Assembly (NCBI GenBank): GCA_021738065.1
Contig: JAIPCT010000024.1
Span: 1 to 42,655 of the forward strand
DNA: 42,655 bases
DNA from: Burkholderiaceae bacterium
GTDB lineage: Bacteria; Pseudomonadota; Gammaproteobacteria; Burkholderiales; Rhodocyclaceae
Direction of reading: 5' to 3'
Both the position numbers and the translations under genes were made by a program. Every line of letters begins with the position of its first letter. Positions within the stretch are counted from its first letter, which is position 1. The notes below the pieces were generated by a model that ran no database searches, was not told the DNA's origin, and saw only the letters and a program-made list of their open reading frames with translations. Positions 9,912-35,260 of this stretch are shown here, one piece after another.

Positions 9912-9968
9912 CCAGGCCTGAAAGCCTGCTGGCGCCGGCGAGTCGTTGCGCCGCTGCGACGCTGTGAC

Positions 9969-9993
9969 GCCGTGTCGCCAGCGCCGACTTTTA
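9969..9993 (+). repeat. Dispersed 24-bp motif, intergenic copy after panD
   Basis: GCCGTGTCGCCAGCGCCGAC followed by TTTTA. Together with GA just upstream it matches the reverse complement of 35234-35260 over 27 bases with one change. The last three bases are the stop codon of the convergent FAH-family gene. CGCCAGC (9976-9982) can pair with GCTGGCG (9928-9934), so a hairpin may form at the end of the pan operon. Confidence 0.75.
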
Positions 9994-10839
9994 GGGACGC
10001 AAGCGGGTGGGGGTCACGGTTTGTGCCTGCTCCCCCAATCCGTCGATGCCGAGACGGACCTGATCACCAATCTTGAGAAAGCGGCCGCGTCCCATGCCGA
10101 CACCCTGGGGCGTGCCGGTGCAGATCACGTCGCCCGGCAGCAGGGTCATAAAGCGTGAGACATAGCTGACGATTCCCTTGCATGAAAAGATCATGTCGGC
10201 TGTGGTCGAGTCCTGCATCCGCTCGCCATTGACATCAAGCCACACTCGCAGTTGCTGTGGATCGGCGATTTCGTCCCGGCTGACCAACCAGGGACCGATG
10301 GGACTGAAACTGTCGCTGCTTTTCCCCTTGTCCCATTGACCGCCGCGTTCGAGTTGAAAGGCGCGTTCGGTCACGTCGTGAAACAGGCAATAGCCGGCCA
10401 CCCGCTCCAGCGCTCGCGATTCGGCGACGTGACGGGTTTCGCGGCCGATGACGATTCCCAGCTCGGCTTCCCAGTCCAGCTTGCTGCTGCCGATGGGCAT
10501 CAGGATCGGGTCGTTGGGGCCGGTGATGGATGTCGTGGCCTTCATGAACATCACCGGTTCGGCTGGGATCGGCATGTTCGCTTCGAGGGCATGGGCGCGA
10601 TAGTTGAGGCCAATGCCTACAATTTTTGAAATACCGGTGAACGGCACGCCCAGGCGCGGCTTGCCGCGCACGATCGGCAGGCTCTGCGGATTCAGGGCAC
10701 GCAAACGTCTTTGGCCGGCTGCCGAGATTTCACTCCAGCCGATCCCGGCGACATGGCGGGAAAGATCGCGCAGTGTGCCGTTCGCATCGATCAGACCCGG
10801 TTTTTCGCGACCACGCGGGCCGTAGCGGACCAGTTTCAT
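9991..10839 (-). CDS. Fumarylacetoacetate hydrolase (FAH) family protein
   Basis: The 282-residue protein has the two-part FAH fold. An N-terminal domain (MKLVRYGPRGREKPGLID) is followed by the catalytic domain with IGLNYRAHALE, the metal-binding acidic residues in WEAELGIVIG, FHDVTERAFQ, and the closing GDVICTGTPQGVG. Members hydrolyse or decarboxylate C-C bonds in aromatic breakdown products (fumarylpyruvate, acylpyruvates, oxaloacetate), and the exact substrate cannot be chosen here. It starts 36 bases after the MCE gene stop and may be the last gene of that operon, though it has no obvious link to lipid transport. Its stop codon is in the dispersed motif. Confidence 0.88.
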   Translation of the reverse strand: MKLVRYGPRGREKPGLIDANGTLRDLSRHVAGIGWSEISAAGQRRLRALNPQSLPIVRGKPRLGVPFTGISKIVGIGLNYRAHALEANMPIPAEPVMFMKATTSITGPNDPILMPIGSSKLDWEAELGIVIGRETRHVAESRALERVAGYCLFHDVTERAFQLERGGQWDKGKSSDSFSPIGPWLVSRDEIADPQQLRVWLDVNGERMQDSTTADMIFSCKGIVSYVSRFMTLLPGDVICTGTPQGVGMGRGRFLKIGDQVRLGIDGLGEQAQTVTPTRLRP

Positions 10840-10875
10840 TGTGTCTCCTTGTGGATGGGGGCGTTGAGTGCTGCG

Positions 10876-11892
10876 TCAGGATGGATCTTTCTTGCGCTTT
10901 CCGCGCAAGATCGCCTCCGGCTGTTCATCCAGGGTTTCCGCCAGCAGGCGCAGGGCATTGGCGGCACGGGTGATTTCTTTCAGCGCGGCGTTGACGTTGG
11001 TCATCGCCGGCGACTCCTGCTCGGTAAGGTGGCGCACCGCCGCCGCGGCTTTCGCCAGTTCCTCGCTGGCTTGGCTCATCCCCTCGACCATGCGCGAATC
11101 GGGTTGCGCCAGTCCGGCAACCCGGTCAGCGGCGGTATCGAGCTTGACCATTGCCGCTTGCGCGGCCAGCAGCGCCTTGTTCAATTCGGCAAGATTGGCC
11201 CTGACATCGTTGAGGATGGGCCCCCCCTGAGCGTCGAAGCGGGCCGCCAGCGACTCAAGGTGGCGCAAGGTCGCTTCCAGCCGCTGCGGCAGTTCCTGCG
11301 TCGTCCGCGCCGACATCAGTTTATTGACCGCGCTGCTGATTGCGGCGACGTCGGTGAGAAAGCTGTCCATGGGGAAGCCTTCAAGCTTGGTGGCCAGTTC
11401 CTGCACGGTCGTGCGTATGGTCGGAATTTCGCTGAGATCGGGGTCGAGCGCGGCAAAAACCGCCGGTTTGTCGGGGTGAAAATCGAGGTCGACGTACAAC
11501 TGGCCGGTGAGCAGACTTTGCATCCGCAGCCGTGCGCGCAAGCCCCGTTCGACCAACTGTTGCACCGTCGCGCGATCGCGCAGGTCGATCGGCTCGCCGC
11601 CGCTCGCGCGCACCGCCTGCGGCTCCAGTTCAATCATTACCGGCACCACGAAGCGGCGACTATGCGGGTCGAGGCCGAGCTGGATTTGCTTGACCGTGCC
11701 GACCTTGACTCCAAGGAATACCACCGGTGCGCCGACCTGCAGCCCCTGCGCCGCGCCGGCAAAGTACAAAACATGTTGCCGCCGCTCGCCAAACCAGTTG
11801 CCGCCGGCCAGTAGCAGGGTGGTGGCGACGGCCAGTGCGGCGGCGCCAACGACGAAGGCGCCGATCAGCGTGGGATTGGCCTTGCGGCTCAT
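10876..11892 (-). CDS. MCE-domain (MlaD-like) substrate-binding protein of an ABC lipid transporter
   Basis: The 338-residue protein has a short cytoplasmic start (MSRKANPTLIGAF), one membrane span at about 10-28 (IGAFVVGAAALAVATTLLLA), and an MCE domain (VGAPVVFLGVKVGTVKQIQL). A long helical periplasmic region rich in Ala, Leu and Glu follows. This matches MlaD/PqiB-type proteins, which carry phospholipids between the membranes. It is much longer than E. coli MlaD (about 180), so it belongs to a longer-tailed subgroup. The start overlaps the ATPase stop as ATGA, which indicates coupling. No auxiliary lipoprotein (MlaC- or PqiC-like) gene follows. Confidence 0.88.
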   Translation of the reverse strand: MSRKANPTLIGAFVVGAAALAVATTLLLAGGNWFGERRQHVLYFAGAAQGLQVGAPVVFLGVKVGTVKQIQLGLDPHSRRFVVPVMIELEPQAVRASGGEPIDLRDRATVQQLVERGLRARLRMQSLLTGQLYVDLDFHPDKPAVFAALDPDLSEIPTIRTTVQELATKLEGFPMDSFLTDVAAISSAVNKLMSARTTQELPQRLEATLRHLESLAARFDAQGGPILNDVRANLAELNKALLAAQAAMVKLDTAADRVAGLAQPDSRMVEGMSQASEELAKAAAAVRHLTEQESPAMTNVNAALKEITRAANALRLLAETLDEQPEAILRGKRKKDPS

Positions 11893-12644
11893 GCAGTGCC
11901 CCCGCGGGTGAGGAAATTGCGCACCTTGGGATGTCCGTTCTTCAGCGCTTCCTGCGGATTGCCGGTGGCGATCATGGTGTGGCTTTCGGAATCGAGATAA
12001 ATCGAATTGTTGCCGATACTGAGGATGCTGGCCAGTTCGTGCGTTACGACGACGATGGTGGTGCCGAGACTGTCGCGCAGTTCGACGATCAATTCGTCGA
12101 GGCGGCGTGCCGTCAGTGGGTCGAGGCCCGACGAGGGCTCGTCGATGACCAGGATGTCGGGGTCGAGCGCCATCGCCCGCGCCAGGCCGGCGCGTTTTTT
12201 CATGCCGCCGGAAAGCTCGGACGGATAGAACTCCTCGAAGCCGGCGAGCCCGACCAGCGCCAGCTTGAAAGCGACGATCTCGTCGACGCGATCCTGCGGC
12301 AGGCCGGTGTATTCGGCGATCGGCAGGGCGACGTTTTCGGCCAGCGTCAACGAACTCCACAGCGCGCCACCCTGGAACAGGATGCCGAGGCGGCGCTTGA
12401 GCCGCTGCCGCGCCTCCGGCTCGACGTTCCAGAAATCCTCACCGCCGTAGAGCACGGTGCCGGCGGCGGGCCGTTGCAGGCCGACCAGGGCGCGCATCAG
12501 CGTGGTCTTGCCGCAGCCGTTGCCGCCCATGACGACGAAGATGTCGCCCTGGTTGACGGTGAACTCGATGCCGCGCTGGACGATGAATTCGCCGTAGGCC
12601 ATCGTCAGGTCGCGGACTTCGATGTGGGGGGCGTTGTCCATCAT
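11889..12644 (-). CDS. ABC transporter ATPase, MlaF-like
   Basis: This 251-residue nucleotide-binding subunit drives the MCE transporter. It has Walker A (GGNGCGKTTL), the signature LSGGMKKRAGLARAMALDP, Walker B (ILVIDEPSSGLDP) and the switch histidine (VVVTHE). GGNGCGKT and the GMKKR signature are typical of MlaF. There are two adjacent ATGs. The second (12639-12641) stands 4 bases after GGAGG, the first only 1 base, so the second may be the real start. That GGAGG comes from the repeat unit upstream (12642-12829). Confidence 0.92.
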   Translation of the reverse strand: MMDNAPHIEVRDLTMAYGEFIVQRGIEFTVNQGDIFVVMGGNGCGKTTLMRALVGLQRPAAGTVLYGGEDFWNVEPEARQRLKRRLGILFQGGALWSSLTLAENVALPIAEYTGLPQDRVDEIVAFKLALVGLAGFEEFYPSELSGGMKKRAGLARAMALDPDILVIDEPSSGLDPLTARRLDELIVELRDSLGTTIVVVTHELASILSIGNNSIYLDSESHTMIATGNPQEALKNGHPKVRNFLTRGGTA

Positions 12645-12829
12645 GCCTCCGCCGGGCCGTCCCGAGGAGGCATGCGCGGCTTGCCCCCTCTGGGGGTGGG
12701 GGACAGCGAGCCGGGTTTGCGAGCGTGGGGGGCCACGTTGTTCACCATGCCTCCGCCGGGCCGCCCCAAGGAGGCATGCGCCCCCCCTGTGGGGGGCAGC
12801 GAGCCGGGTTTGCGAGCGTTAGGGGCCAT
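12641..12829 (-). repeat. Two-unit direct repeat forming a 62-codon ORF between mla permease and ATPase genes
   Basis: Two similar units (12642-12736 and 12746-12829) share CATGCCTCCGCCGGGCCG, a GGAGGCATGCGC stretch, a C/G-run hairpin, and AGCGAGCCGGGTTTGCGAGC. On the minus strand they make one open frame that starts with an ATG touching the permease stop (TAAATG) and ends in a TGA overlapping the ATPase start (ATGA). The product would contain two copies of the pattern A-P-x-A-R-K-P-G-S-L. Repeats of this kind (GCTCGCAAACCCGGCTCGCTG core) are, from memory, common near gene starts in some betaproteobacterial genomes. Whether the peptide is made is unknown. Confidence 0.8.
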
Positions 12830-13963
12830 TTAGATACCCAACTGGTAATAGACGATGGTCATGATCGAGGCGACGATGGTGATCAGCAGGATCGCGGTAA
12901 CCACGGCGGACGTGGCCGCATGGCCCACCGCCTCGGCGCTGCGGCCGCACTGCATGCCGCGCAGGCAGCCGGCAAAGGCGATCATCGCGCCATACACCGT
13001 GCCCTTGGACAGGCCGACGGCGAAATGCTTGAGTTCAAGCGCACGCAGAGTTTCCGTGTAGTACTCGAAGACGCCGATGTCGAAGACGGTCACCGACACC
13101 AGCAGTCCCGCCAGCATGCCGATGAAGCCCGAGTAGAGCGTGAGCAGCGGCACCATCAGCATCAGTGCCAGCATGCGCGGCAGCACCAGGAAGTCGATGG
13201 CGGAGATGCCCAGCGTCTTGTAGGCATCGATCTCCTCGTTGACCTGCATGGTGCCAAGCTGGGCGGCGAAGGCCGCGCCAGTGCGACCGGCGATGATGAT
13301 GCCGGTCATCAAGGCGCCGACTTCGCGCACCATGCCGATCGCCACAAGATCGGCGATGAATACTTGCGCGCCGACCAGGCGCAATTGGTCGGCGCCGAGA
13401 TAGGCCAGGATCAGGCCGACGAGAAAGCTGATCACTGAGACGATGGGCAGCGCGCGCGGCCCGACTTCCTCGATTTCGAGCCACAGGTCGCGGCGGCGAA
13501 AGCGGGCGCGCCCGGTCAGCAGCCGCAGCAGGGACAGTGTGACCTCGCCGAGGAAGCCGAGCATCTGCGGCGCGCCGTGAAAGAATCCCAGGCTTGCCGC
13601 GCCGACCGAGGCTAGCAAACCTGCTGCGTCATCGCTCCGGCTGGCCAGTTCCTGCTCCGGTACGGCGATCGCCATCGCCAGCAATCGTTGCGCCCCCGGT
13701 GGGAGCCCACCGAAATCAACGGCAATATCGCGATCCATGCAGAGCTTGCCGATCACGAAAACAAAACTGGGTAGCCCCGAATCCCAGTCGGCGAGCCGGC
13801 TGGTATCAAAGCGGATGTGGCGGATCTGTGGATTCAGCCGCTCTTGCAGGCTATCGGCCGAAGGCAGATGCTGGTCGATGCACCAGCATCCACCGAGAAC
13901 TACGGTCAGGGCGTCGGCGCCCGCCGGCTGCAGATCAAGCTGCCATCCTGCATCGCTGCGCAT
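12830..13963 (-). CDS. ABC transporter permease, MlaE family with N-terminal STAS-like domain
   Basis: The 377-residue protein has an N-terminal soluble part of about 110 residues resembling a STAS domain (DLQPAGADALTVVLGGCW, IRHIRFDTSRLADWDSGLPS). A MlaE permease domain with several membrane spans follows (ALPIVSVISFLVGLILAYLG, VGALMTGIIIAGRTGAAFAA, MLALMLMVPLLTLYSGFIGM). The motif GRTGAAFAAQLGTMQVNEEIDA is characteristic of MlaE. It would form the membrane part of a phospholipid transporter with the ATPase and MCE protein downstream. Permeases with a fused STAS-like domain form a known MlaE subgroup. It begins 12 bases after the helicase stop. Confidence 0.92.
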   Translation of the reverse strand: MRSDAGWQLDLQPAGADALTVVLGGCWCIDQHLPSADSLQERLNPQIRHIRFDTSRLADWDSGLPSFVFVIGKLCMDRDIAVDFGGLPPGAQRLLAMAIAVPEQELASRSDDAAGLLASVGAASLGFFHGAPQMLGFLGEVTLSLLRLLTGRARFRRRDLWLEIEEVGPRALPIVSVISFLVGLILAYLGADQLRLVGAQVFIADLVAIGMVREVGALMTGIIIAGRTGAAFAAQLGTMQVNEEIDAYKTLGISAIDFLVLPRMLALMLMVPLLTLYSGFIGMLAGLLVSVTVFDIGVFEYYTETLRALELKHFAVGLSKGTVYGAMIAFAGCLRGMQCGRSAEAVGHAATSAVVTAILLITIVASIMTIVYYQLGI

Positions 13964-13975
13964 GGCCGACTTATT

Positions 13976-15538
13976 CTATTTCTTGCCTAGTCCGCCGAGT
14001 AGCGCGGCAACCGGTTTTTGTGGACGACTCGGCGACGGCTTGCCGGCAGCGGCTTCGACCGCATTGGTTTTACTGACGTATGGCTTGTTCGGGTCGAAAT
14101 CCAGTTTCGGCAGACGCGAATCGATCCGCGGCAGATGGGCTGCGGGTGATGGAAGATGAGGCGGTGGCCGGCGATCATGCTGCTTGGTTTCGCGCTCGCG
14201 GCGCTTCTCTTCGTGCTCGCGGCGATGGCCGCCGCCACCGCTGCGCTCGCGCCCGCGTTCGCGTTCTGGCGGCGCACTGCCAAGATTGAAGCCGGTGATC
14301 TCGACGCGGTCGATCTTGCGCTTGATCAGCTTCTCGATGTCGGCCAAGCGCTGGGTTTCCTCGGGTGCGAAGAGCGAAGTGGCGTTGCCCGATTTGCCGG
14401 CGCGGCCGGTGCGGCCGATGCGATGGATGTAGTCCTCGGCGGTATGCGGCAATTCGTAATTGATGACGTGGGGCAGATCGTCGATGTCCAGTCCGCGCGC
14501 GGCGACGTCGGTGGCAACCAGGACGCGGATCTTGCCGGACTTGAAGGCTTCCAGCGCCTCGGTGCGCTGTTGCTGGCTCTTGTCGCCGTGAATGGCATCG
14601 GCGGCGATGTCTTGACGCTCGAGGTATACCGCCAGCCGGCTGGCACCGAACTTGGTGCCGACGAAGACCAGCACCTGCTTGGCATTTTCCTCGTCGTGTG
14701 TCAGCAGATGCACCAGCAGGCTGCGCTTGAGGTCTGATGCCACGGGGTAAACCCGGTGGGTAACGGTCTCGGTCACCATGTTGCGCCGCGCTACCTCAAT
14801 CAGTTGCGGTGCCTTGAGCATGCTGTCTGCGAGATTCTTGATCTCGTTGGAGAAGGTCGCCGAGAACAGCAGGCTCTGGCGTTCCTTTGGCAGCATGGCG
14901 AGGATGCGTTTGATGTCCGGAATGAAGCCCATGTCCAGCATGCGGTCAGCCTCATCAAGCACCAGCACTTCGACGGCATTGAAGCTGACGCTTTTCTGCT
15001 GCACGTGGTCGAGCAGGCGGCCCGGCGTGGCGACGACAATCTCGCGGCCCTCGCGCAGTTCGGCAATCTGCGGCCGGATATCGACACCGCCGTAGATGCA
15101 GACGGAACGCAGCGGCAGGTGTTTGCTGTAGGTGACCACGCTTTGATGCACCTGCATTGCCAGCTCGCGTGTCGGCGCCAGAATCAGCGCGCGCACCGGA
15201 TGACGGGCGGGGGAGGGCGAGCTGCTGGCATAACGGGCCAGGCGTTGCAAAAGCGGGAGGGTGAAGCCGGCGGTTTTGCCGGTGCCGGTCTGGGCGCCAC
15301 CCATGACGTCCTTGCCGGCCATGATGATGGGAATGGCCTGTACCTGAATCGGTGTCGGTGTCGTGTAGCCGGCGTCGGCGATGGCGCGCAACAATTCGGG
15401 CAACAGCCCCAATTGGGCAAAAGTTCCCGCAGGGACGCAGGGCGCCGGCGCTGGCAGGACGGCGGCCAGCGCTGCCTCCTGGGTGGCGTCCAAGCTTGCG
15501 TCGGCGGAATGGGCAATACTGTCTGGGGTCGCGTTCAA
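13976..15538 (-). CDS. DEAD-box RNA helicase, RhlE-like
   Basis: The 520-residue protein carries the helicase motifs in order: Q motif (GYTTPTPIQVQAIP), motif I (AQTGTGKTAGF), Ia (PTRELAMQV), GG and TPGR (TPGRLLDHV), motif II (VLDEADRMLDMGF), III (SATFS), then ARGLDI and HRIGRTGRAGK in domain 2. The C-terminal tail is basic and low in complexity (REREREREKR-type, then proline-rich) as in RhlE proteins, which remodel RNA in ribosome assembly or decay. No ATG is near the start. The best initiation is the TTG at 15538, 5 bases after AGGAG. A 37-codon upstream ORF ends in that same TTGA. A weaker copy of the dispersed motif lies in the N-terminal coding part. Confidence 0.93.
   Translation of the reverse strand: MNATPDSIAHSADASLDATQEAALAAVLPAPAPCVPAGTFAQLGLLPELLRAIADAGYTTPTPIQVQAIPIIMAGKDVMGGAQTGTGKTAGFTLPLLQRLARYASSSPSPARHPVRALILAPTRELAMQVHQSVVTYSKHLPLRSVCIYGGVDIRPQIAELREGREIVVATPGRLLDHVQQKSVSFNAVEVLVLDEADRMLDMGFIPDIKRILAMLPKERQSLLFSATFSNEIKNLADSMLKAPQLIEVARRNMVTETVTHRVYPVASDLKRSLLVHLLTHDEENAKQVLVFVGTKFGASRLAVYLERQDIAADAIHGDKSQQQRTEALEAFKSGKIRVLVATDVAARGLDIDDLPHVINYELPHTAEDYIHRIGRTGRAGKSGNATSLFAPEETQRLADIEKLIKRKIDRVEITGFNLGSAPPERERGRERSGGGGHRREHEEKRRERETKQHDRRPPPHLPSPAAHLPRIDSRLPKLDFDPNKPYVSKTNAVEAAAGKPSPSRPQKPVAALLGGLGKK
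15444..15465 (-). repeat. Dispersed 24-bp motif, weak copy inside helicase gene
   Basis: On the minus strand, GCCGTCCTGCCAGCGCCGGC shares GCCGTC and GCCAGCGCCG with the family but has three changes and lacks the T run. This is the least certain copy. Confidence 0.35.
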
Positions 15539-15648
15539 ATGAACTCCTGAATCGGCCTGCCCCTCGCGGGGAACCGGTTCAGGCGGCGAAGCGCTTGAGG
15601 AAGATGCGGCAGGATGCCGAATTGGGCGCCAACCGGCAGGGCGCGCAT
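15535..15648 (-). CDS. Putative 37-residue upstream ORF coupled to the helicase gene
   Basis: An ATG at 15648 opens a 37-codon frame beginning MRALPVGAQFGILPHLPQAL. Its TGA overlaps the TTG start of the helicase (TTGA). A -10-like TACAAT (15661-15656) lies only 7 bases before the ATG and no Shine-Dalgarno precedes it, so a transcript from it would be leaderless. The arrangement suggests translational coupling or a leader peptide that controls the helicase. No convincing -35 box is seen, and the peptide resembles nothing I know. It could be chance. Confidence 0.35.
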   Translation of the reverse strand: MRALPVGAQFGILPHLPQALRRLNRFPARGRPIQEFI

Positions 15649-15702
15649 GACGCGTATTGTATTACAGTCGGTCCGCCCCTGTGCCGACCGCCCAATCCGG
15701 GC

Positions 15703-16404
15703 TCATTTGAACAGGCCCTTGATCGCGGCGCCGGCCTTGTCCAGCGTATCTCCGGTGGACTTCATCAGACGCTCAAAACTCACGGCGCCGGTCAGTCTGG
15801 CTTTCAAAGCGCCGGTGACTTCCTGTCCAAGCTCGCCAGGAGTGATTCCACCCTTGTCCTTGCCGATATTTTTCAGGGTGATATCGGGCAGCGCGAGGTC
15901 AATGGTTTTCCCATTCATGAAGGGCGCACTGGCTTGCGCTTTGGCGTTGCGGATGGTGAGTTCCTCGACGATCAGCTTCTTGCCTTGCCGTGCGTTGCCA
16001 GCCGGGCCAAGATAGGCGCTGATGTTCTTCTGTATCGCGTCGAAGTTGGTCAAGGAATCGCCTTTTTCGTAGATCACGTCGGGAGCAATGATGGCGATGC
16101 GGCGAATCAGGATGACATTTTCGGCGAGAGTCGCCTGATCGATTTCGACATCGATCCTGCTGACCTTGAGCGCATGCGCGGTTTTGAACCCGGCCGGATT
16201 GGCGACGAGCAGATGACTGACGACCGCTTTGCCGTCGGTTGGCCTGATCTTTACGGCCTCGACATTGACCTTTGCCTTTGTCATGGCAGTGCCATAGTCG
16301 GCAATGGCGTCTTTGATCAGGCCGTCAATACTGTCGGAAAGCCAGAACAGGCTCGCACCGATGATTGCCGCAACCACAAGCAGTCCGGTCGCGAGCTTTT
16401 TCAT
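15703..16404 (-). CDS. Membrane-anchored AsmA-like periplasmic protein, unknown function
   Basis: The 233-residue protein has one N-terminal hydrophobic segment (MKKLATGLLVVAAIIGASLFW), a signal anchor or uncleaved signal. The rest is mainly beta, with the repeating pattern of AsmA/DUF748-type proteins (VNVEAVKIRPTDGKAVVSHL, then VSRIDVEIDQATLAENVIL and IVEELTIRNAKAQ). Such proteins are linked to outer-membrane assembly or lipid transfer; here the assignment rests on pattern only. The start ATG overlaps the esterase stop as ATGA. I preferred 16404 to the longer open frame because it gives a normal signal-like start and the coupling. Confidence 0.7.
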   Translation of the reverse strand: MKKLATGLLVVAAIIGASLFWLSDSIDGLIKDAIADYGTAMTKAKVNVEAVKIRPTDGKAVVSHLLVANPAGFKTAHALKVSRIDVEIDQATLAENVILIRRIAIIAPDVIYEKGDSLTNFDAIQKNISAYLGPAGNARQGKKLIVEELTIRNAKAQASAPFMNGKTIDLALPDITLKNIGKDKGGITPGELGQEVTGALKARLTGAVSFERLMKSTGDTLDKAGAAIKGLFK

Positions 16405-17249
16405 CGAGATTTCTCGAATAGGCGCAGCACGGCCTGGAACAGGGTGTGATCCGGCTCGCCCAGCGCCTCGACGGCAGCCAGATGATGGCGGCCGTTCAGC
16501 GGAATCTCCCGATCGAAGCAGTGCGGCCAAACTTCGGCGATGAGTCGGGTTTGGCGCTTGAACTCGGCACTTTCGTCACTACCGACAGCAGTGATCAAGG
16601 GCGTGGAGAAACGCGGCCGATAGCGGCATGGACTGAGGAATCGCGCCTGTTCCTCATCAAGATTGAGATCGTCGCGCAAAAAGGGCGCATGCGCGAGCGG
16701 TCGGAGATCATAGAGCCCGGAAATGCACACCGCGCCGGAAAGCAGGTCGGCGGGCAAATCGCGCGACCACCTTGGCCAGTCGGCGGCAAGCATCATTGCG
16801 GCGAGGTGGGCGCCGGCAGAGTGTCCTGCGACCACGATGCGCCGCCTGTCGATGTCGAAGCGCGGCAGATTGCGATACAACCAGGAAAAGGCGCGCAGCA
16901 ACTGAAGGATCATCTCCTTGATCGATGTGGCAGGGGCCAGACCGTAATTCGGAATCGCAACGGCAACGCCTTCGCCGACGAAAGCCGACGCGAGAAAGGA
17001 AAAGTCCTGCTTGTCCAGGGCTCGCCAGTAACCGCCATGGATGAATACCAGAAGCGGCGCGTTGGCCGAGTCCGCCTGAAAAAGATCAAGCGATTCGGCA
17101 GCCGAGGTGCCGAAAAACAAGTCTGGCTGGTGGCACAACTCTTTTCGGGCAGCACGAGACTCCGCGCGCCAGCGATCAAAAACCTGCTGATGATCCGGGA
17201 TTGCCGCCCGGGCGTTGTATTCGCGATCGAGTTGTTCGGGTGTCAGCAT
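16401..17249 (-). CDS. Alpha/beta hydrolase, arylformamidase/esterase-like
   Basis: The 282-residue serine hydrolase has the oxyanion motif FIHGGYWRA and the nucleophile elbow AGHSAGAHLAA. The HGGYW and GHSAGA pair is typical of the kynurenine formamidase/BD-FAE group, which cleaves N-formylkynurenine or small esters. The N-terminus (MLTPEQLDREYNARAAIPDH) is also usual for that subgroup. The likely catalytic His is in NGRHHLAAVEALGEPDH. No other tryptophan-degradation gene is nearby, so the substrate is open. It is followed in overlap by the AsmA-like gene. Confidence 0.85.
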   Translation of the reverse strand: MLTPEQLDREYNARAAIPDHQQVFDRWRAESRAARKELCHQPDLFFGTSAAESLDLFQADSANAPLLVFIHGGYWRALDKQDFSFLASAFVGEGVAVAIPNYGLAPATSIKEMILQLLRAFSWLYRNLPRFDIDRRRIVVAGHSAGAHLAAMMLAADWPRWSRDLPADLLSGAVCISGLYDLRPLAHAPFLRDDLNLDEEQARFLSPCRYRPRFSTPLITAVGSDESAEFKRQTRLIAEVWPHCFDREIPLNGRHHLAAVEALGEPDHTLFQAVLRLFEKSR

Positions 17250-17294
17250 TTCTCGGACTCGATTGATCAGCGCGGCACCCGGCGGCGCGTGGGG

Positions 17295-17732: not shown

Positions 17733-17775
17733 GCGGGGATGTATGCTGACAATGAGTTTCCGGGTTCGCTGCGAT

Positions 17776-18276: not shown

Positions 18277-18392
18277 AACGCTCTATTGGCGCTTGCAAAG
18301 AAGCGCGTCTATTTATATCGATGTCTAAACTATCAAAATACACAGGTTTCCGCAATGATATGAATGGCGAATCCGGCAAAAAGCTGTTCGAC

Positions 18393-18854: not shown

Positions 18855-18897
18855 TCGTGGTTCTCCTTGCCAGGCCCAAGCCTGAGCCAATCGTGTT

Positions 18898-22438: not shown

Positions 22439-22449
22439 GATGAGCAGAA

Positions 22450-23982
22450 TCAGAACAGGCGCGGGCCTGGCATACCGGAGGCCTTGCCGCCATTCTTGGT
22501 CTGCTGGCCGATGATCATCTCGCTGCCTTCCTTGATCTCGCCCGAGATGATTTCCGTCATGCTGCCGTCGGTGATGCCCAGACGCAGATTGATCGCTTTT
22601 GGACTGCCATCTTCACCCATGATCCAGATTCGACCGCTGCCGCCACCACCGCCGGCGCGCGCCGCTTGTGCGTCACTGGCCATTTCGGCGTAGCGGAGCT
22701 TTTGCTCGGTGCTCAGTATGAGAGCGACTTTCTCGCGGATTTCGGCACGATTGCGTTCCTGCGCGCGGTTTTTTTCCGCGTCAGGGAGGTCGCGCGCTGC
22801 CTGGAATTTTTCACGCATGCCGGCAAATATGGCATCCAGTTTGGCCCGCTGATCGGCGTCGAGCTTGAGCTCGGTGGCCAGGCGCTCGCGCAACTGAGCT
22901 TGCCCGCCGCCTGTACCACCCGTCGAAGTCGGCGCTGGCGAGACGGTGGTTTCGCTCTTCTTTTCGTCGGTCGCACCCGGCGGCCGATAGCGTAACGCGG
23001 CATTCGGCAGCTTGAGCGCATTGTCCTTGTGCGCGGTGACGATGCGGACATTGGCGGTCATTCCGGGAAGCAGGGTGAGATCGGGATTCGCGGCAGAAAC
23101 CACCACGATGTAGGTGACGACATTGGATACCACGGTCGCCGCTTTCCTCACCTGGATGACTTCGCCAACGAAATCGCGGCCGGCAAAAGCATCCACTGTG
23201 AAGCTGGCTTTCTGCCCCTTGCGGATGCGCCCAACATCGGCTTCATCGATCGAGGTTTCCACTTGCATGTCGGTGAGGCTTTTGGCGATCACGAACAATT
23301 CGGGCGACTGCAGGCTGGCGGCGACGGTCTGTCCTGGTTCGACACTGCGCTTGACGACGATGCCGTCGACCGGAGCCTTGATCGCCGTGCGCTCCAGATC
23401 AATGCGGGCCTGCCCCAACTGAGCTTCGCGCTGGCGCACCTGTGCTTCGCTGTTTTTGGATTGCGATTCGGTGACTTGTAAAGCGGCACGACCGGCATCG
23501 AGAACACTCTGCGCCTTTTCCCGCTCAGCGGATGAAAGGAAGTTCCTCTCGACCAGCAGCTTCTTGCGCTCGAAGTCGCGCTGGAACTCCGCAAGATTGG
23601 CCTTGGCGCGCAGCACCTCGGCCCGCTGCACACCGAGCGCGGCTCGGGCAGCCTCCACGTCGGCTTCCGCCTGGCGCACCCGATACTGAAACGTCTCGGG
23701 ATCGATGCGGGCAATCAGCTGATTGACTTTTACCGGTGAGTTGAAGTCGACCAGGATCTCTTTGATCTGTCCCGAAACCTGCGAGCCGACTTGCACCGAA
23801 ACGACCGGGTTCAGGGTGCCGGTGGCCGAAACGGCCGAGGTAAGCGGACCGATTTCAGCCTTGCCCAGCTTGAACTTCGGCGCGTCGCCGACCGCGCCGA
23901 AACTGCGCCATCCCCAATAGCCGGCGCCCGCCAGAGCGATCAACACCAGGCCGACAAGGCCAAAACGAGCGGTTGTTTTCAT
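22450..23982 (-). CDS. MacA-like periplasmic adaptor with an inserted LTxxQ-type helical segment
   Basis: The 510-residue adaptor has an N-terminal membrane anchor ([18 protein letters not shown]), a barrel-sandwich lipoyl domain ([20 protein letters not shown]), a long coiled-coil hairpin (about 95-200), the second lipoyl half ([20 protein letters not shown]) and beta-barrel domains. After PNAALRYRP (about residue 326) a low-complexity linker leads into roughly 75 helical charged residues holding LDADQ (374-378) and LSTEQ (423-427), like the LTxxQ motifs of Spy/CpxP. A glycine-rich linker and a normal C-terminal membrane-proximal domain follow. Typical MacA is about 370-400 residues, so the extra length is this insert. 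Start 23982 chosen as MKTTARFG; it begins 46 bases after the soxB stop. Confidence 0.9.
22926..22947 (-). repeat. Dispersed 24-bp motif, copy inside macA-like gene
   Basis: On the minus strand, ACCGTCTCGCCAGCGCCGAC followed by TT, then CGACG. It encodes TVSPAPTS in the low-complexity linker before the helical insert, a place that tolerates added sequence. Confidence 0.55.
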
Positions 23983-26453: not shown

Positions 26454-26467
26454 TTCGTCTCTCCTCT

Positions 26468-27277: not shown

Positions 27278-27344
27278 GGTTTCTCCTCCAGGGTGCATGC
27301 CGCCGGTCTTGATTGCCGGCCTTTGCGGGGTAACGGATAGGGTG

Positions 27345-27656: not shown

Positions 27657-27693
27657 GGTGTACTCCCTTCTTTATCCTGTCTATTGGGTCTGC

Positions 27694-28170
27694 TTAGCCG
27701 CCGCAGCCGCCGACGGTAACCTTGACTTCTTTTTGCGCAATATAGAACTTGCCATCAGCCTTGACGACCGCCTTGACCAGCGACGTTTGTCCCAGTTTCA
27801 GGCGCACCGCAGCTTCCGGCAGGGCGCCGTTGGCAAAATCGAAATGAGCGGAAAGCGGTAGCGGATTCTTCTCGACCAGAATTGCAATTGAAACCGTGTT
27901 GGGAATGGTGCTCACCACGTCGACCGGCACGACAGCGCCGTTCTCCGCAATATCGGGGACCTTGAGGATCAGGCCCTTGTGTTCGCCTGGCGTTCCTGCT
28001 CCGAGACCTTTGAGTACGCCGGTCGTATCCTGGGCTTCAAACGCGGCCTTGTTCCACTCTGCCGCAAAAGCGGCAGTGGGCTTGAGCACTCCGGCTGCAA
28101 TCAGCGCTGAAAGCGCCCCCAGACTGCCGGCGCCGCGAAGTACGGTTCTCCGTGTGACGTTCATTTCCAT
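27694..28170 (-). CDS. soxY: Thiosulfate oxidation carrier protein SoxY
   Basis: SoxY carries sulfur intermediates on a C-terminal swinging-arm cysteine. The 158-residue protein has a twin-arginine signal (NVTRRTVLRGAGSLGALSAL) and ends KVTVGGCGG, where Cys156 is the carrier residue. It is the first gene of the operon soxY-soxZ-soxA-soxX-soxB. AGGA lies 9 bases before the ATG at 28170; a second ATG at 28164 is possible. A TATAGA hexamer (minus strand, 28207-28202) might be a -10 box, but I see no good -35. No dedicated regulator lies next to the cluster. Confidence 0.97.
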   Translation of the reverse strand: MEMNVTRRTVLRGAGSLGALSALIAAGVLKPTAAFAAEWNKAAFEAQDTTGVLKGLGAGTPGEHKGLILKVPDIAENGAVVPVDVVSTIPNTVSIAILVEKNPLPLSAHFDFANGALPEAAVRLKLGQTSLVKAVVKADGKFYIAQKEVKVTVGGCGG

Positions 28171-28482
28171 GCTTGGTTATCCTCCGTATCATTATTTTGA
28201 ATCTATAGCTGTTTCGCGAGCAAACTTAACACTTGTTGAATCAGAAACAAAGCCTCATGGGTCGAGCGAATGTTTAAGTCTTGCATACAAATCGCGCAGC
28301 GTAAATGGGAAATATCTATTTGAGAAATCATGCAAGCAATGGAATAAAGTCAGGTGGGACTTCGTCGCAATTTCATTGCGCAGTGCACCAGTTGCACGAT
28401 GCTTCCCGGTTTTAACGCGTGTCTCGTGGAACGCCACGATCAGTCGCGTACTCGGATAGTTCGGTCGCGTTGTGCGCGACAC

Positions 28483-28514
28483 TGGAAATGGAAATGGAAA
28501 TGGAAATGGAAATG
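28483..28514 (+). repeat. Hexanucleotide tandem repeat (TGGAAA)5
   Basis: Five exact TGGAAA units followed by TG. It lies in a region with no recognised gene. A hexamer would not shift a reading frame, but a change in copy number could alter promoter spacing or RNA structure. Confidence 0.9.
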
Positions 28515-28656
28515 CGCTTTTGGCATTTGGCGAATCTACCGCGCGTTACTGTTCACGGTCGCTTTGCGTCGGCTGGATTCATGGCGAATCGGGCTTTGAT
28601 TCGTAGCTCAATGGAGTGCCGCGAGGCAAGCCGACAATAGATTCAGGCTGGGGACA

Positions 28657-28685
28657 TTGTGAGACGATGAAGTTTGTCGGATAAT
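28657..28685 (+). promoter_or_regulatory. Sigma70-type promoter of tRNA-Leu
   Basis: TTGTGA (28657-28662) and GATAAT (28680-28685) are separated by 17 bases, the optimal spacing. Transcription would start near 28692, giving a 37-base leader before the tRNA. Confidence 0.6.
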
Positions 28686-28728
28686 GCGCGCCTCGCAGCG
28701 CTGGTTTCGACGTGCTGCGAACCCCCGG

Positions 28729-28813
28729 GCCGGGGTGACGGAATCGGTAGACGTAGCGGTCTCAAACACCGCCGCCGCAAGGCGTGGGGATTCGACTTCC
28801 CCCCCCGGCACCA
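28729..28813 (+). tRNA. tRNA-Leu (anticodon CAA)
   Basis: The 85-base tRNA folds fully. The acceptor arms are GCCGGGG (28729-28735) and CCCCGGC (28803-28809). The anticodon stem GCGGT/ACCGC holds the loop CTCAAAC, giving anticodon CAA for UUG codons. A long variable arm (GCC-GCAA-GGC type) is typical of leucine tRNAs, and the T arm is GGGGA-TTCGACT-TCCCC. The 3' CCA is encoded (ACCA at 28810-28813). Confidence 0.96.
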
Positions 28814-28871
28814 AGAGCGCCAGTCATGATCGTGAAAACGGACAGTGCTGCTCTGAAATGAATGGATGTGG

Positions 28872-28901
28872 CGAGAATTCTCTCGAATTCGGGGTTGTTT
28901 T
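28872..28901 (+). terminator. Possible weak terminator after tRNA-Leu
   Basis: CGAGA (28872-28876), ATTC, TCTCG (28881-28885) forms a 5-bp stem. A T-rich stretch (TTGTTTTATT) comes about 10 bases later. Spacing is longer than ideal. Confidence 0.3.
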
Positions 28902-29046
28902 ATTGGCGACGCGTTGGTGACACCCCATGCCGGTAACAAGGGCAGCAGGAGAAAAACTGCGGAATTCCGGATTACACTGAGCGCTCTGGACACTTGTTCA
29001 GCCTCGTGGAGGGTAGGTTTTGATAACGCCGAAATCTGGAGTTTCA

Positions 29047-29721
29047 ATGACAGTGCTTCGGGCGCTGCCGATTTTCGAGACGCTCGACGACGACTGTCTT
29101 GCGCCCCTGACCCGGGTTTCCATGCTGCGTAATATTCCGCGGAACACCGTGGTCTTGCATGATGGCGATCGTACCGACAACATCTACTTTGTCCTCTCTG
29201 GCGCGCTGAAGGTGCAAGTCAGCGACAAGGAGGGACGCGAGGTCATCCTGTCGATGCTCGGTCCCGGAGAGCTCTTCGGCGAGATGGGCGTGCTCGACGA
29301 CCATCCGCGTTCGGCGACGGTATTGGCGGTCGAGTCCAGCGAGGTGGTGATGATAGGCAAGGCCGATTTCAAGCAGTGCCTGGTGGACAATCCCGACGTC
29401 TCCCTGTTCATCATGCGCAATTTGACTAAACGCTTGCGCCTGGCCGACCGCAACATCGAGAGTCTTGCGCTGCTCGATGTCTATGGCCGTGTCGCGCGAC
29501 TGTTGCTGGAATCGGCGGAAACCGTGAACGGGCGCCAAGTTGTGACGCACAAGATTTCGAAGCAGGATATCGCCAAGATGATTGGCGCATCGCGTGAAAT
29601 GGTCAGCCGCGTAATGCGCGATCTCCTGGTTCAGGGACTGATAGAGGAAGAGGATGGGCAACTGATTCTGGTTGATCTGGCCGTGCTTAAGCGAAGCGAC
29701 TATCAACGATCAGAGGAATGA
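29047..29721 (+). CDS. Crp/Fnr-family transcriptional regulator
   Basis: The 224-residue protein has a cyclic-nucleotide-binding-type domain (about 5-120) with VLSGALKVQVSDKEGREVIL and the phosphate-binding-cassette-like GPGELFGEMGVLDDHPRSATV. A long dimer helix follows, then a helix-turn-helix ISKQDIAKMIGASREMVSRVMRDL. The FGEMGVLDDHPRSATV stretch is close to that of cNMP-binding members (Crp/Vfr type), and no cysteines for an iron-sulfur cluster are present, so it is not an Fnr oxygen sensor. GGAG lies 5 bases before the ATG at 29047. An in-frame TTG at 29020 with GGAGG 7 bases upstream would add nine residues and is nearly as good. It lies between tRNA-Leu and queA; its targets are unknown. 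Confidence 0.9.
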   Translation: MTVLRALPIFETLDDDCLAPLTRVSMLRNIPRNTVVLHDGDRTDNIYFVLSGALKVQVSDKEGREVILSMLGPGELFGEMGVLDDHPRSATVLAVESSEVVMIGKADFKQCLVDNPDVSLFIMRNLTKRLRLADRNIESLALLDVYGRVARLLLESAETVNGRQVVTHKISKQDIAKMIGASREMVSRVMRDLLVQGLIEEEDGQLILVDLAVLKRSDYQRSEE

Positions 29722-29787
29722 GAGCCGTTCAAGCATAGCCTCGGCACAACGCCGATCAATTCCTGCTTCCCGTCTCATGCCATTTTG

Positions 29788-31932
<2,145 letters not shown>

Positions 31933-31967
31933 TCACCGGTTATGTCCGACATTCTTGGAGACTCATA

Positions 31968-32309
31968 GTGCTGATTTCAAATGCTTACGCGCAGGCAGCG
32001 GGTGCCGCCGCCGATCCGTCGGGCGGTCTGATGAGCATGCTGCCCATCATTCTCATGTTCGTTGTGCTGTGGTTCGTGATGATTCGACCGCAAATGAAGA
32101 AGGCCAAAGAGCAACAGAAGATGGTTAGCGAGCTGGCCAAGGGCGATGAAGTGGTCACCCAGGGTGGCATAGCCGGTCGCATTTCCAAGGTGGGTGAGAA
32201 TTATCTCAGCCTGGAAGTGGCCGAAGGCAAGGATGGCGCGGTGGTGATTACCGTGCAGAAGAACTCCGTGGGCGCGCTGCTGCCCAAGGGCACACTGAAA
32301 AACCTGTAA
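31968..32309 (+). CDS. yajC: Sec translocon accessory protein YajC
   Basis: The 113-residue protein has one membrane span (MSMLPIILMFVVLWFVMI, about 20-38) followed by the conserved RPQMKKAKEQQKMVSELAKG and GDEVVTQGGIAGRISKVGE, the standard YajC pattern. It associates with SecDF and SecYEG. The start is GTG at 31968 with GGAG 7 bases upstream. The genes tgt-yajC-secD-secF are in their usual order. Confidence 0.96.
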   Translation: MLISNAYAQAAGAAADPSGGLMSMLPIILMFVVLWFVMIRPQMKKAKEQQKMVSELAKGDEVVTQGGIAGRISKVGENYLSLEVAEGKDGAVVITVQKNSVGALLPKGTLKNL

Positions 32310-32351
32310 TTACCAAGCCGGCCGCGTCAACGCGGCAGCGGCTACCATGCC

Positions 32352-34220
32352 ATGAATCGCTATCCGCTCTGGAAGAACGCCACGGTGTTAATCGCCCTGG
32401 TGCTTGGACTGCTCTACACCCTGCCCAATTTTTTTGGTGAAGCGCCGGCCGTGCAAGTGGCCAGCGTGAAGTCGACTCACAAAGTCGACGCCAAATTATT
32501 GGCCCGGGTGGAAGAGGCGTTGAAGACGGCGGCGATCCTGCCGCAAGGAATTGTTCTGGATCTGACGAGCATTCGGGTCCGATTGCCGGATACCGATAGC
32601 CAGATCAAGGCCAAGGACGTCATTGAAAAGGCGCTCAATCCTGTCGCCGACGATGCAAGCTATAGCGTTGCATTGAATCTGGTGTCGGACTCTCCCAATT
32701 GGCTGACGGGCATACATGCCCTGCCCATGTATCTCGGCCTTGATTTGCGGGGTGGCGTGCATTTTCTGTTGCAGGTGGATATGCAGGGCGCGCTGACCAA
32801 ACGCCTGGATTCCACGGGCGCGGACTTGCGCAGCCTGTTGCGAGACAAGAACATTCGTCACAGCGGCATCAACCGCAACGGACAAACTGTTTCGATCGGT
32901 TTTCGGGACGCCGAAACCCGGGAAAAGGCGCTTGCCTTCCTGATCGACAATCAACCGGATTTACAACTGCTCGAAGCTCAGGACGGCGCCGATCTCAAAC
33001 TGATCGCGACGCTCAAACCTGTGGCGCAGAAGCGCATTCAGGAATTCGCGGTCAAGCAGAACATTACGACCCTGCACAACCGCATCAACGAACTCGGCGT
33101 TGCCGAGCCAGTCATCCAGCAACAGGGCGCGGATCGTATCGTGGTGCAGTTGCCGGGCGTTCAGGACACCGCCAAGGCCAAGGATATTCTGGGTCGTACC
33201 GCGACTCTTGAAGTGCGCATGGTCGATGATGAGGCCAGCGCCGATCCGAATGTCATGGAGCGAGCGGCACGAGGCCAGCCGCCTCCCGGTACTGAATACT
33301 TCGTCGAGCGCGGTGGTCAGCCCTTGCTGGTCAAAAAGCAGGTGGTGTTGACCGGTGAACGGCTGACAGATGCCCAGCCGGGGTTCGACAGCCAGACTCA
33401 GGAAGCCGCTGTCCATTTGTCGCTTGATTCAGCCGGTGCTCGCATATTCAAGGACGTAACGCGTGAGAGCGTCGGCAAGCGCATGGCGATTGTGCTGATA
33501 GAAAAAGGCAAGGGCGAGGTGGTAACCGCGCCGGTGATACGCACGGAGATCGGCGGTGGCCGGGTGCAGATTTCCGGCCGCATGAGCACTGTTGAAGCCA
33601 ACGATGTCGCCTTGCTGTTGCGTGCCGGATCGCTTGCGGCACCGATGGAAATCATCGAAGAACGCACCATCGGTCCAAGTCTCGGTGCCGACAACATCGC
33701 CAAGGGCTTCAGTTCGACGCAGTGGGGTTTTGTCGCGATCGCCGTGTTCATGTCTTCGTACTACCTGCTGTTCGGAGCCGTGTCGGTGTTTGCACTGTCG
33801 GCAAATCTACTGTTGCTGGTGGCGCTGCTTTCCTTGCTGCAGGCCACGCTGACACTCCCCGGTATCGCCGCGGTCGCGCTGACGCTCGGCATGGCGATCG
33901 ATGCCAACGTGCTGATCAACGAGCGGATACGCGAGGAACTGCGCGGCGGCAATTCCCCGCAGGCCGCGATCACTGCCGGCTACGAGCGTGCCTGGGCGAC
34001 AATTCTCGACTCGAATATCACCACCCTGATCGCTGGCGTGGCCCTGCTGATATTTGGTTCCGGGCCGGTACGAGGTTTCGCCGTGGTGCATTGTCTGGGT
34101 ATTCTGACCTCGATATTCAGCTCGGTTGTCGTATCGCGGGCGCTGATCAACCTGATCTACGGCAGTCGACGCAAACTGACATCGGTCAGCATCGGACAAG
34201 TTTGGAAACCGGGAGCCTGA
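32352..34220 (+). CDS. secD: Protein translocase subunit SecD
   Basis: SecD uses the proton gradient to assist late steps of export through SecYEG. The 622-residue protein begins MNRYPLWKNATVLIALVLGL with the first membrane span, then a large periplasmic part with LGLDLRGGVHFLLQVDM, and ends with five further spans. The RND-type motifs GMAIDANVLINERIREELRGG are in the fourth span region. The length matches the family. secF begins one base after its stop. Confidence 0.97.
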   Translation: MNRYPLWKNATVLIALVLGLLYTLPNFFGEAPAVQVASVKSTHKVDAKLLARVEEALKTAAILPQGIVLDLTSIRVRLPDTDSQIKAKDVIEKALNPVADDASYSVALNLVSDSPNWLTGIHALPMYLGLDLRGGVHFLLQVDMQGALTKRLDSTGADLRSLLRDKNIRHSGINRNGQTVSIGFRDAETREKALAFLIDNQPDLQLLEAQDGADLKLIATLKPVAQKRIQEFAVKQNITTLHNRINELGVAEPVIQQQGADRIVVQLPGVQDTAKAKDILGRTATLEVRMVDDEASADPNVMERAARGQPPPGTEYFVERGGQPLLVKKQVVLTGERLTDAQPGFDSQTQEAAVHLSLDSAGARIFKDVTRESVGKRMAIVLIEKGKGEVVTAPVIRTEIGGGRVQISGRMSTVEANDVALLLRAGSLAAPMEIIEERTIGPSLGADNIAKGFSSTQWGFVAIAVFMSSYYLLFGAVSVFALSANLLLLVALLSLLQATLTLPGIAAVALTLGMAIDANVLINERIREELRGGNSPQAAITAGYERAWATILDSNITTLIAGVALLIFGSGPVRGFAVVHCLGILTSIFSSVVVSRALINLIYGSRRKLTSVSIGQVWKPGA

Positions 34221-34221
34221 C

Positions 34222-35181
34222 ATGGAATTTTTTCGCATTCGCAAAGACATTCCTTTCATGCGCCATGCGCTGGTGTTCAATGTCATTTCATTGCTAACCT
34301 TCCTGCTGGCGGTGTTCTTCCTGGTAAGCCGGGGCTTGCATCTCTCGGTCGAGTTCACCGGCGGTACGCTGATCGAGGTCGCGTATTCACAGGCACCTGA
34401 ACTGCAACAGATACGTAAGCAACTGGAAAGCGACGGCTTTACCGACACCCAAGTACAAAACTTTGGCTCCTCGCGCGACGTATTGATCCGCGTGCCTTTG
34501 GCCAAGGGCGCCGAAACCTCGAAAGTCGGCGATCAGGTGATGGCGTCCCTGGCAAAAATCGTGAGCACCGAGGCAACCGCGACGGCAGACGGCGCGGCAT
34601 TCGGGTTGAAACGAGTCGAATTCGTCGGGCCGCAGGTTGGCAGGGAACTCGCCGAAGACGGAGCGCTGGCCCTATTACTGGTAATCATCGGCATCATGGG
34701 CTATCTGGCGATGCGTTTCGAATGGCGTTTTGCGCTTTCGGCGATCATCGCCAACATGCATGACGTGGTGATTATTCTCGGCTTCTTTGCTTTCTTTCAA
34801 TGGGAGTTCTCGTTGCCCGTGCTGGCGGCGGTGCTGGCGGTGCTCGGCTACTCGGTCAATGAGTCGGTGGTAGTGTTTGACCGGGTACGCGAAACTTTCA
34901 AGAAGAAACGCGGGCTGACCACGCCCGAAGTGCTCAATCACGCCATCACCAGCACGATATCGCGCACCATCATCACCCATGGCAGCACGCAGATGATGGT
35001 CACTTCGATGCTGATTTTCGGCGGTCCGGCATTGCACTATTTCGCGCTGGCATTGACCATCGGCATTCTGTTCGGCATTTACTCTTCAGTGCTGGTGGCA
35101 AGCCCGCTGGTGATGTGGATGGGCGTGTCACGAGAGCAGTTCATTCAGCCGAAAATAGAGAAACAGGAAGCAGTGGTCTGA
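34222..35181 (+). CDS. secF: Protein translocase subunit SecF
   Basis: SecF pairs with SecD. The 319-residue protein has a first membrane span (VFNVISLLTFLLAVFFLVS), the conserved LSVEFTGGTLIEV, then spans including LAVLGYSVNESVVVFDRVRE, where the Asp and Arg are conserved, and TISRTIITHGSTQMMV. Length and order are normal. A hairpin and one copy of the dispersed motif follow its stop. Confidence 0.97.
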   Translation: MEFFRIRKDIPFMRHALVFNVISLLTFLLAVFFLVSRGLHLSVEFTGGTLIEVAYSQAPELQQIRKQLESDGFTDTQVQNFGSSRDVLIRVPLAKGAETSKVGDQVMASLAKIVSTEATATADGAAFGLKRVEFVGPQVGRELAEDGALALLLVIIGIMGYLAMRFEWRFALSAIIANMHDVVIILGFFAFFQWEFSLPVLAAVLAVLGYSVNESVVVFDRVRETFKKKRGLTTPEVLNHAITSTISRTIITHGSTQMMVTSMLIFGGPALHYFALALTIGILFGIYSSVLVASPLVMWMGVSREQFIQPKIEKQEAVV

Positions 35182-35214
35182 AGGGCCACAGCGGGTCGGG
35201 GAAGACGCAGACCC

Positions 35215-35260
35215 TGCCAGCGACCATCGGCTGAAAAGTCGGCGCTGGCAACACGGCGTC
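35215..35260 (-). repeat. Dispersed 24-bp motif with hairpin, intergenic copy after secF
   Basis: 35234-35260 read on the minus strand is GACGCCGTGTTGCCAGCGCC followed by GACTTTT, matching the copy after panD over 27 bases with one change. TGCCAGCG (35215-35222) and CGCTGGCA (35243-35250) are complementary, so a stem with a 20-base loop may form at the end of the secDF transcript. The rest of the gap (35182-35381) holds no gene. Confidence 0.75.

What the first reader, a model, noticed from the sequence alone, without database searches (positions are those of the whole stretch)
9966..35260. A ~24-bp motif dispersed in both orientations through genes and operon ends
The consensus GCCGTSTCGCCAGCGCCGAC plus TTTT occurs at 9969-9992 and 35234-35258 (intergenic; 26 of 27 bases identical to each other), and at 2855 (valS), 7101 (folK), 22926 (macA-like) and 30586 (queA), with a weaker copy at 15444 (helicase). 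The host genes are unrelated, and the frame and strand in which the motif is read differ: it gives SPAP in folk and macA-like genes, and VGAG in valS and queA. A shared DNA-level function or a small insertional repeat is therefore more likely than protein homology. Several copies have a complementary CTGGC or CGCTGG arm near by (7125, 2885, 35215, 9928), as in REP-type elements. An uptake signal, a nucleoid or segregation protein site, or a REP-like mobile unit are all possible. I do not know a described element with this sequence.
Basis: partly seen in the sequence, partly recalled or inferred. Interest (0 to 1): 0.8.

Follow-up and report, generated by a model that had tools for sequence, protein, structure and literature searches.

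The report
Genome-wide 24-letter repeated DNA word
The genomes of a group of environmental bacteria (Sulfuritalea and relatives) are dotted with hundreds of copies of one 24-letter DNA word that evolves like the "this DNA is from your own kind" tags known in two other bacterial families, although uptake of tagged DNA has not been tested.

Summary
The window has 7 copies (0.03 expected); its genome has 572 at up to 3 mismatches, against 4 for the reversed pattern. The word is about 24 bp, T-CGCCGT-N-N-CGCCAGCGCCGAC-TTT: asymmetric, equal on both strands, mostly inside genes in all six frames, without replication polarity, more evenly spaced than random. Examined copies arise by substitution, not insertion. 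In queA, four-fold-degenerate sites inside the motif are 91% conserved, against 48% outside. Six genera of Rhodocyclaceae are rich in it; a seventh carries a dialect (GCCGAC to GTCGAC). Two genomes within rich genera have lost most or all of it. A DNA uptake sequence (DUS/USS), reported only in Neisseriaceae and Pasteurellaceae, is the best fit. ComEC is present in all genomes tested; the one complete genome examined has a minor-pilin operon with a ComP_DUS-family pilin. Against it: canonical ComEA was not found in 17 of 19 motif-rich genomes, the pilin also occurs in motif-free relatives, and uptake is untested. A REP/RAYT origin is not supported, but copies are commoner beside Y1-transposase genes (16 of 24 within 200 bp). 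Best reading: a third uptake-sequence system with a long word (0.55).

The parts
2854..2875 (+). motif copy inside valS (gene on -), 1 mismatch in the 20-mer, T-run lost; orthologous site also has the motif in G002
7100..7124 (+). motif copy inside folK/HPPK, sense strand, 1 mismatch, TTTT present; orthologous sites in G002 and in L116 have the motif
9968..9992 (+). perfect copy with TTTT at the end of an intergenic gap between convergent genes (aspartate decarboxylase and FAA hydrolase)
15444..15464 (-). degenerate copy (3 mismatches, no T-run) in a DEAD-box helicase gene; the aligned G002 stretch is closer to consensus (CGCCGTCCCGCCAGCGCCGACC), so probably a decayed or half-formed site
22926..22948 (-). 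motif copy inside the HlyD/MacA-like gene (sense), 1 mismatch
30585..30609 (-). perfect copy with TTT inside queA (antisense); synonymous sites inside it are conserved across the genus
35234..35258 (-). intergenic copy with TTTT, 1 mismatch, in the gap between convergent secF and the adenylosuccinate lyase gene

Best explanation
The motif is a DNA uptake sequence: a roughly 24-bp tag, T-CGCCGT-N-N-CGCCAGCGCCGAC-TTT, read on free DNA by a surface receptor, probably a type IV minor pilin, so that competent cells of this Rhodocyclaceae clade preferentially take up DNA of their own kind. SHOWN: overabundance, strand symmetry, intragenic spread, lack of replication polarity, even spacing, origin by substitution, DNA-level conservation in queA, clade restriction, a dialect, secondary loss.
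For: 572 copies against 4 control; 28 of 31 same-genus genomes have 302-686 copies at up to 2 mismatches. De novo, the top 12-mer of a 360-kb sample of G002 is CCAGCGCCGACT, 48 against 0.84 expected. G002: 52 of 70 copies genic in all six frames, 24 sense and 28 antisense, 16 intergenic and 2 at gene ends, with 87% of the stretch coding; 75 + and 67 - copies in 780 kb, by my sum 73 leading and 69 lagging; spacing CV 0.74, P = 0.0036. queA: no gap inside the motif in 30 rows; four-fold third positions identical to the window in 115 of 126 comparisons inside and 1494 of 3100 outside. Dialect in G098: AGCGTCGACTTT 9 against 0.04 expected in 80 kb, 128 copies genome-wide, changed in place at two orthologous sites. 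Six genera rich, other genera 0-46 per genome except a genus-rich member with loss. ComEC in 40 of 40 genomes. In G002 a pilin over the Pfam ComP_DUS cut-off (43.6 against 27.3 bits) lies just before a fimT-pilV-pilW-pilX-pilY1 operon. Published uptake sequences share the traits: 65% of H. influenzae copies in ORFs, no orientation bias, even spacing, rise by point mutation (passages of PMC1939737), dialects (PMC3630211).
Against: No uptake or transformation experiment. Canonical ComEA found in only 2 of 19 motif-rich genomes (both genus g88) with a family-specific profile. The ComP_DUS pilin occurs in 59 of 60 genomes, motif-rich and motif-free alike, and is absent from the dialect genome G098; by eye its charge does not differ between the two groups. 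G016 and G293 lost the motif but keep ComEC and a ComP_DUS pilin. The closest PDB sequences to the pilin are other pilins, not ComP. The word is longer than the 9-12 nt of known tags and rarer (about 1 per 5.5 kb in G002). The inverted terminator pairs of Neisseria are not seen. Copies are commoner beside Y1-transposase genes and occur in phage DNA, neither of which the model requires.
Confidence: 0.55

Rival explanations
1. A chromosome-organising site: a cytoplasmic protein (nucleoid, condensin or segregation protein) binds the 24-bp word at about 600 evenly spaced places and structures the chromosome.
For: Even spacing, chromosome-wide spread, a sharp asymmetric logo without flanking conservation, DNA-level conservation. 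ComEA mostly absent.
Against: No polarity towards ori or ter, unlike KOPS or matS (recalled). A whole-genome dialect change and near-complete loss in G016 and G293 are unexpected for an essential organiser. No candidate protein was sought or found.
Confidence: 0.2
2. A self tag for recombination or defence: a Chi-like or nuclease-sparing signal by which the cell tells its own DNA from foreign DNA inside the cytoplasm; some phages mimic it.
For: Clade-specific and abundant; three of 39 stretches of G002, all of low GC, have none (L252, L260, L262); present in DNA with phage tail, terminase and primase genes.
Against: No orientation bias; 24 bp is far longer than known Chi sites (recalled). Phage copies are sparse: 11 at up to 2 mismatches beyond the one each contig was selected for, in 287 kb of 36 whole contigs; 1 of 80 tail-sheath relatives has even a 3-mismatch copy.
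Confidence: 0.12
3. A REP-like or otherwise mobile repeat spread by the Y1 (IS200/RAYT-type) transposases of these genomes.
For: Y1_Tnp genes in 26 of 31 same-genus genomes. 16 of the 24 Y1 genes examined have a motif within 200 bp (12 beyond the 3' end, 11 of them in one orientation; 4 before the 5' end); base rate for G002 genes 12.8%, or 15% with free flanks. Many loci are homologous, so by rough grouping 7 of 13 independent groups. A 7-copy tandem array of 24-25 bp units exists.
Against: In the two loci read in full, the Y1 gene is bracketed by other repeats (GGGGTCAGAG in G000, GGGGACAGACC in G002), with the motif outside them at no fixed distance. Most copies are genic and aligned copies are gap-free. 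No palindrome or pairing arms. G001, G007, G012 and G018 have no Y1 hit yet 359, 537, 422 and 433 copies.
Confidence: 0.08
4. Chance, codon usage or conserved protein sequence.
For: The genomes are GC-rich and some genic copies lie in conserved genes.
Against: 572 against 4; all six frames; synonymous conservation inside queA; nearly absent from relatives in 24 other families, 0-4 copies each.
Confidence: 0.01

Closest known systems
DNA uptake sequence (DUS) of Neisseriaceae, read by the minor pilin ComP
   Same: Clade-specific, overrepresented, asymmetric, both strands, often intragenic, dialects in related genera; a ComP_DUS-family pilin is encoded in G002 beside fimT
   Different: About 24 bp instead of 10-12; about 1 per 5.5 kb instead of about 1900 copies per Neisseria genome; no inverted pairs; ComEA mostly not found; uptake untested. 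The shared start GCCGT(C)T may be coincidence: that position is unconserved here
Uptake signal sequence (USS) of Pasteurellaceae
   Same: Extended motif with a T-rich end (29-bp extended consensus, passages of PMC1939737), even spacing, copies inside ORFs, rise by point mutation
   Different: Unrelated sequence and family; here nearly the whole word is strongly conserved, not a 9-bp core
REP elements with RAYT transposases
   Same: Short repeat in hundreds of copies; Y1_Tnp genes in most genomes, with motif copies near two thirds of those examined
   Different: Mostly genic, not palindromic, made by substitution, abundant without a Y1 hit; the Y1 genes read in full have repeats of their own
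Chi, KOPS, matS and parS sites (recalled)
   Same: Overrepresented chromosomal sites
   Different: Longer word, no polarity, not regional

Membership tests
DNA uptake sequence (DUS/USS) | Strong genome-wide overrepresentation, both strands | tested here: met
   572 against 4, 296/276; 28 of 31 same-genus genomes 302-686
DNA uptake sequence (DUS/USS) | Frequent inside ORFs, any frame, with excess in non-coding DNA | tested here: met
   52 of 70 genic, 16 intergenic, 2 at gene ends, 87% coding by a home-made gene caller
DNA uptake sequence (DUS/USS) | No replication polarity; even spacing | tested here: met
   75 + / 67 -, 73 leading / 69 lagging in 780 kb; CV 0.74, P 0.0036 for 76 copies in 360 kb
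DNA uptake sequence (DUS/USS) | Arises by point mutation at existing sites | tested here: met
   queA, 30 rows; in other genes the evidence is mixed: 50 of 88 aligned pairs keep the motif, 31 have a gap in it, many in poor alignments
DNA uptake sequence (DUS/USS) | Dialects among related taxa | tested here: met
   G098 GTCGAC dialect; g88 copies often read TCACCAGCG (listed places)
DNA uptake sequence (DUS/USS) | Type IV pili and ComEC | tested here: met
   ComEC 40 of 40; minor-pilin operon in G002; other pilus parts not searched
DNA uptake sequence (DUS/USS) | Periplasmic ComEA | tested here: not met
   2 of 19 motif-rich genomes. A usual part of the pathway rather than part of the tag's definition
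DNA uptake sequence (DUS/USS) | Specific receptor that tracks the motif | tested here: inconclusive
   ComP_DUS pilin in 59 of 60 genomes regardless of motif, missing in G098
DNA uptake sequence (DUS/USS) | Motif enhances binding or uptake of DNA (the defining function) | not testable with these tools
   needs an experiment
REP/RAYT | Extragenic location | tested here: not met
   52 of 70 genic
REP/RAYT | Palindromic, able to form a hairpin | tested here: not met
   arms not enriched
REP/RAYT | Copies flank the RAYT gene | tested here: inconclusive
   16 of 24 Y1 genes within 200 bp, but outside the element's own repeats

The most novel reading that the evidence does not exclude
A third, independently evolved self-DNA uptake code, in free-living Rhodocyclaceae, with a word about twice the length of known tags, recognised through a ComP-family or other minor pilin and working without canonical ComEA; mobile Y1 elements and some phages ride on the tag.
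Probability: 0.4. Interest if true: 0.87.

Novelty: new variant of a known kind. Interest (0 to 1): 0.72.

Why it matters
[quoted passage not shown] A third, environmental lineage with its own word, a dialect and recent losses would let the old question of whether uptake tags are selected self-recognition or a by-product of receptor bias be tested by comparison, outside pathogens. If it works without ComEA, the machinery itself is new. If it is not an uptake tag, it is an unexplained 24-bp chromosome-wide word kept at DNA level across at least six genera.

Tried and rejected
Insertion element: the queA copy aligns gap-free. REP-like arms and inverted pairs: not enriched. Terminator or RNA-level signal: no sense bias (24 sense, 28 antisense). 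Chi/KOPS/matS: no polarity or regional bias. FimT/GspH as the receptor: 22 of 25 genomes, no relation to the motif. ComP_DUS pilin as a discriminating marker: 59 of 60 genomes. Uptake-like words in five motif-poor or motif-free genomes (G034, G036, G063, G073, G076): nothing dispersed stood out in samples of 40-80 kb; G071 showed two 12-mers in 3-4 bins, not followed. In 36 whole viral contigs the motif is sparse. Plasmid search with window queA DNA: no match. Literature: searches showed no paper on an uptake sequence in Rhodocyclaceae or Sulfuritalea in the open-licence library held; subscription papers are not covered.

Limits of the counts: searches left out same-genome pairs, pairs above 95% identity and alignments without 100 bp flanks; 666 of 762 pairs were queA pairs, and of 96 others 88 fell in the tabulated identity bins. 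One search left out G000 itself, G016 and G021. 'Tex' for the ~800-aa HHH_3 hits and all statements about Chi, KOPS, matS and parS are recalled.
Full report
OBSERVATION. The window lies in a 3.40-Mb draft genome of 148 contigs, 87.6% complete, with 572 copies at up to 3 mismatches, 296 forward and 276 reverse, against 4 for the reversed pattern.

ANATOMY. In 780 kb of the single-contig relative G002, 142 copies at up to 3 mismatches give the logo T(.63) CGCCGT, a position that is almost never T, a position T/C/G, CGCC-A(.84)-GCGCCGAC-T(.97), then a T/C-rich tail of about three bases. There is no conservation beyond about 25 bp, so the word is not the visible part of a longer element. The top overrepresented 12-mer found without prior knowledge in 360 kb is CCAGCGCCGACT, 48 against 0.84. 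Arms that could form a hairpin are not enriched.

PLACEMENT. Of 70 copies in 360 kb of G002, 52 are inside predicted genes, 16 intergenic and 2 at gene ends, with 87% of the stretch coding; all six frames are used, 24 sense and 28 antisense (home-made gene caller). Copies fall 75/67 on the two strands and, by my sum over the GC-skew switch, 73/69 on leading and lagging strands. Spacing is more even than random (CV 0.74, P 0.0036). Three stretches without copies (L252, L260, L262) have low GC.

EVOLUTION. The queA copy aligns with 23 genus-mates and 6 outgroup sequences without a gap inside the motif; outgroups differ by substitutions. Among 21 compared genus-mates, four-fold third positions inside it equal the window in 115 of 126 comparisons, against 1494 of 3100 outside and 1362 of 2275 at C/G-ending codons outside. 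This is one gene. Over other genes the orthologue evidence is thinner: 50 of 88 aligned pairs keep the motif, 31 have gaps in it, many in doubtful alignments. The valS and folK copies of the window are present at the orthologous places of G002.

RANGE, DIALECTS, LOSS. In the genus, 28 of 31 genomes have 302-686 copies at up to 2 mismatches; G016 has 33, G021 132 and G025 187; 30 genomes of other genera and families have 0-4. Of 297 family genomes, 37 have 100 or more, all in six genera (g1, g32, g43, g62, g70, g88); G076 has 40, G098 31, and G016 and G293 of rich genera 46 and 0; the remaining genomes have 0-18, some clustered (for example 5 of the 6 in G135 lie within 41 kb), as expected of transferred DNA. 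G098 has its own form, CCAGCGTCGACTTT, found de novo (9 against 0.04), with 128 copies at up to one mismatch; at two orthologous sites a standard copy faces a dialect copy. Copies of genus g88 often read TCACCAGCG (listed places).

MACHINERY. ComEC is in 40 of 40 genomes tested and passes the ComEC/Rec2 cut-off in G002. In G002, a pilin over the Pfam ComP_DUS cut-off lies just before fimT, pilV, pilW, pilX and pilY1 genes. That pilin family occurs in 59 of 60 genomes and none of 14 control genomes, with or without the motif, and is missing only in G098, a draft of 330 contigs that also lacks GspH hits. Sequence search of the PDB gives other pilins, not ComP. Canonical ComEA is in 2 of 19 motif-rich genomes, both g88, and in some motif-free genera. 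So the machinery is partly there, does not discriminate, and has an unexplained gap.

MOBILE DNA. Y1_Tnp genes occur in 26 of 31 same-genus genomes. In the two loci read in full they are bracketed by repeats unrelated to the motif. Yet over 22 loci with 24 Y1 genes, motif copies are denser within 1 kb (one per 2.0 kb; G002 genome sample one per 5.5 kb), and 16 of 24 genes have one within 200 bp, against 12.8% of G002 genes. Many of these loci are homologous; roughly 7 of 13 independent groups are positive. Either the elements settle near the word, or small mobile islands carrying it spread better by uptake. Four genomes without a Y1 hit still have 359-537 copies.

INTERPRETATION. The traits match those listed for uptake sequences in the passages read (PMC1939737; PMC3630211). 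Because ComEA is mostly missing and uptake is untested, I give 0.55 to the uptake tag, 0.20 to a chromosome-organising site, 0.12 to an intracellular self tag, 0.08 to a REP/RAYT-type origin. As function is not shown, I do not file it as a DUS; I say it behaves like one.

Noticed in passing
L008:1422-1594 (G000:C38, about 11465-11640): Seven head-to-tail copies of the motif with a 24-25 bp period: a local array of the word itself.
   Followed up: partly
L154:9800-12600 (G000:C83): Two Y1-transposase genes bracketed by a repeat TGCCAAAGGGGTCAGAGACATTTCGC; motif copies lie nearby but outside it.
   Followed up: partly
L372:780-2300 (viral contig IMGVR_UViG_3300009945_000063): An array of about 316-bp units that looks by eye like integron cassettes (GCCTAAC...GTTAGGC, label recalled), each unit with a motif copy.
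   Followed up: no
G135:C1:1461265-1502264 and similar clusters: Stray motif copies of motif-poor genomes are clustered, suggesting transferred islands; the word may serve as a tracer of donor clade.
   Followed up: no
G016 and G293: Genomes of motif-rich genera that have lost most or all of the motif but keep ComEC and a ComP_DUS pilin: natural knock-outs for finding the gene lost with it.
   Followed up: partly
L308-L310 (G071 samples): Two other words, AGAGGTGGCCCC and AAAGTCATGACC, occur 4 times each in 60 kb in 3-4 separate 2-kb bins; nature unknown.
   Followed up: no
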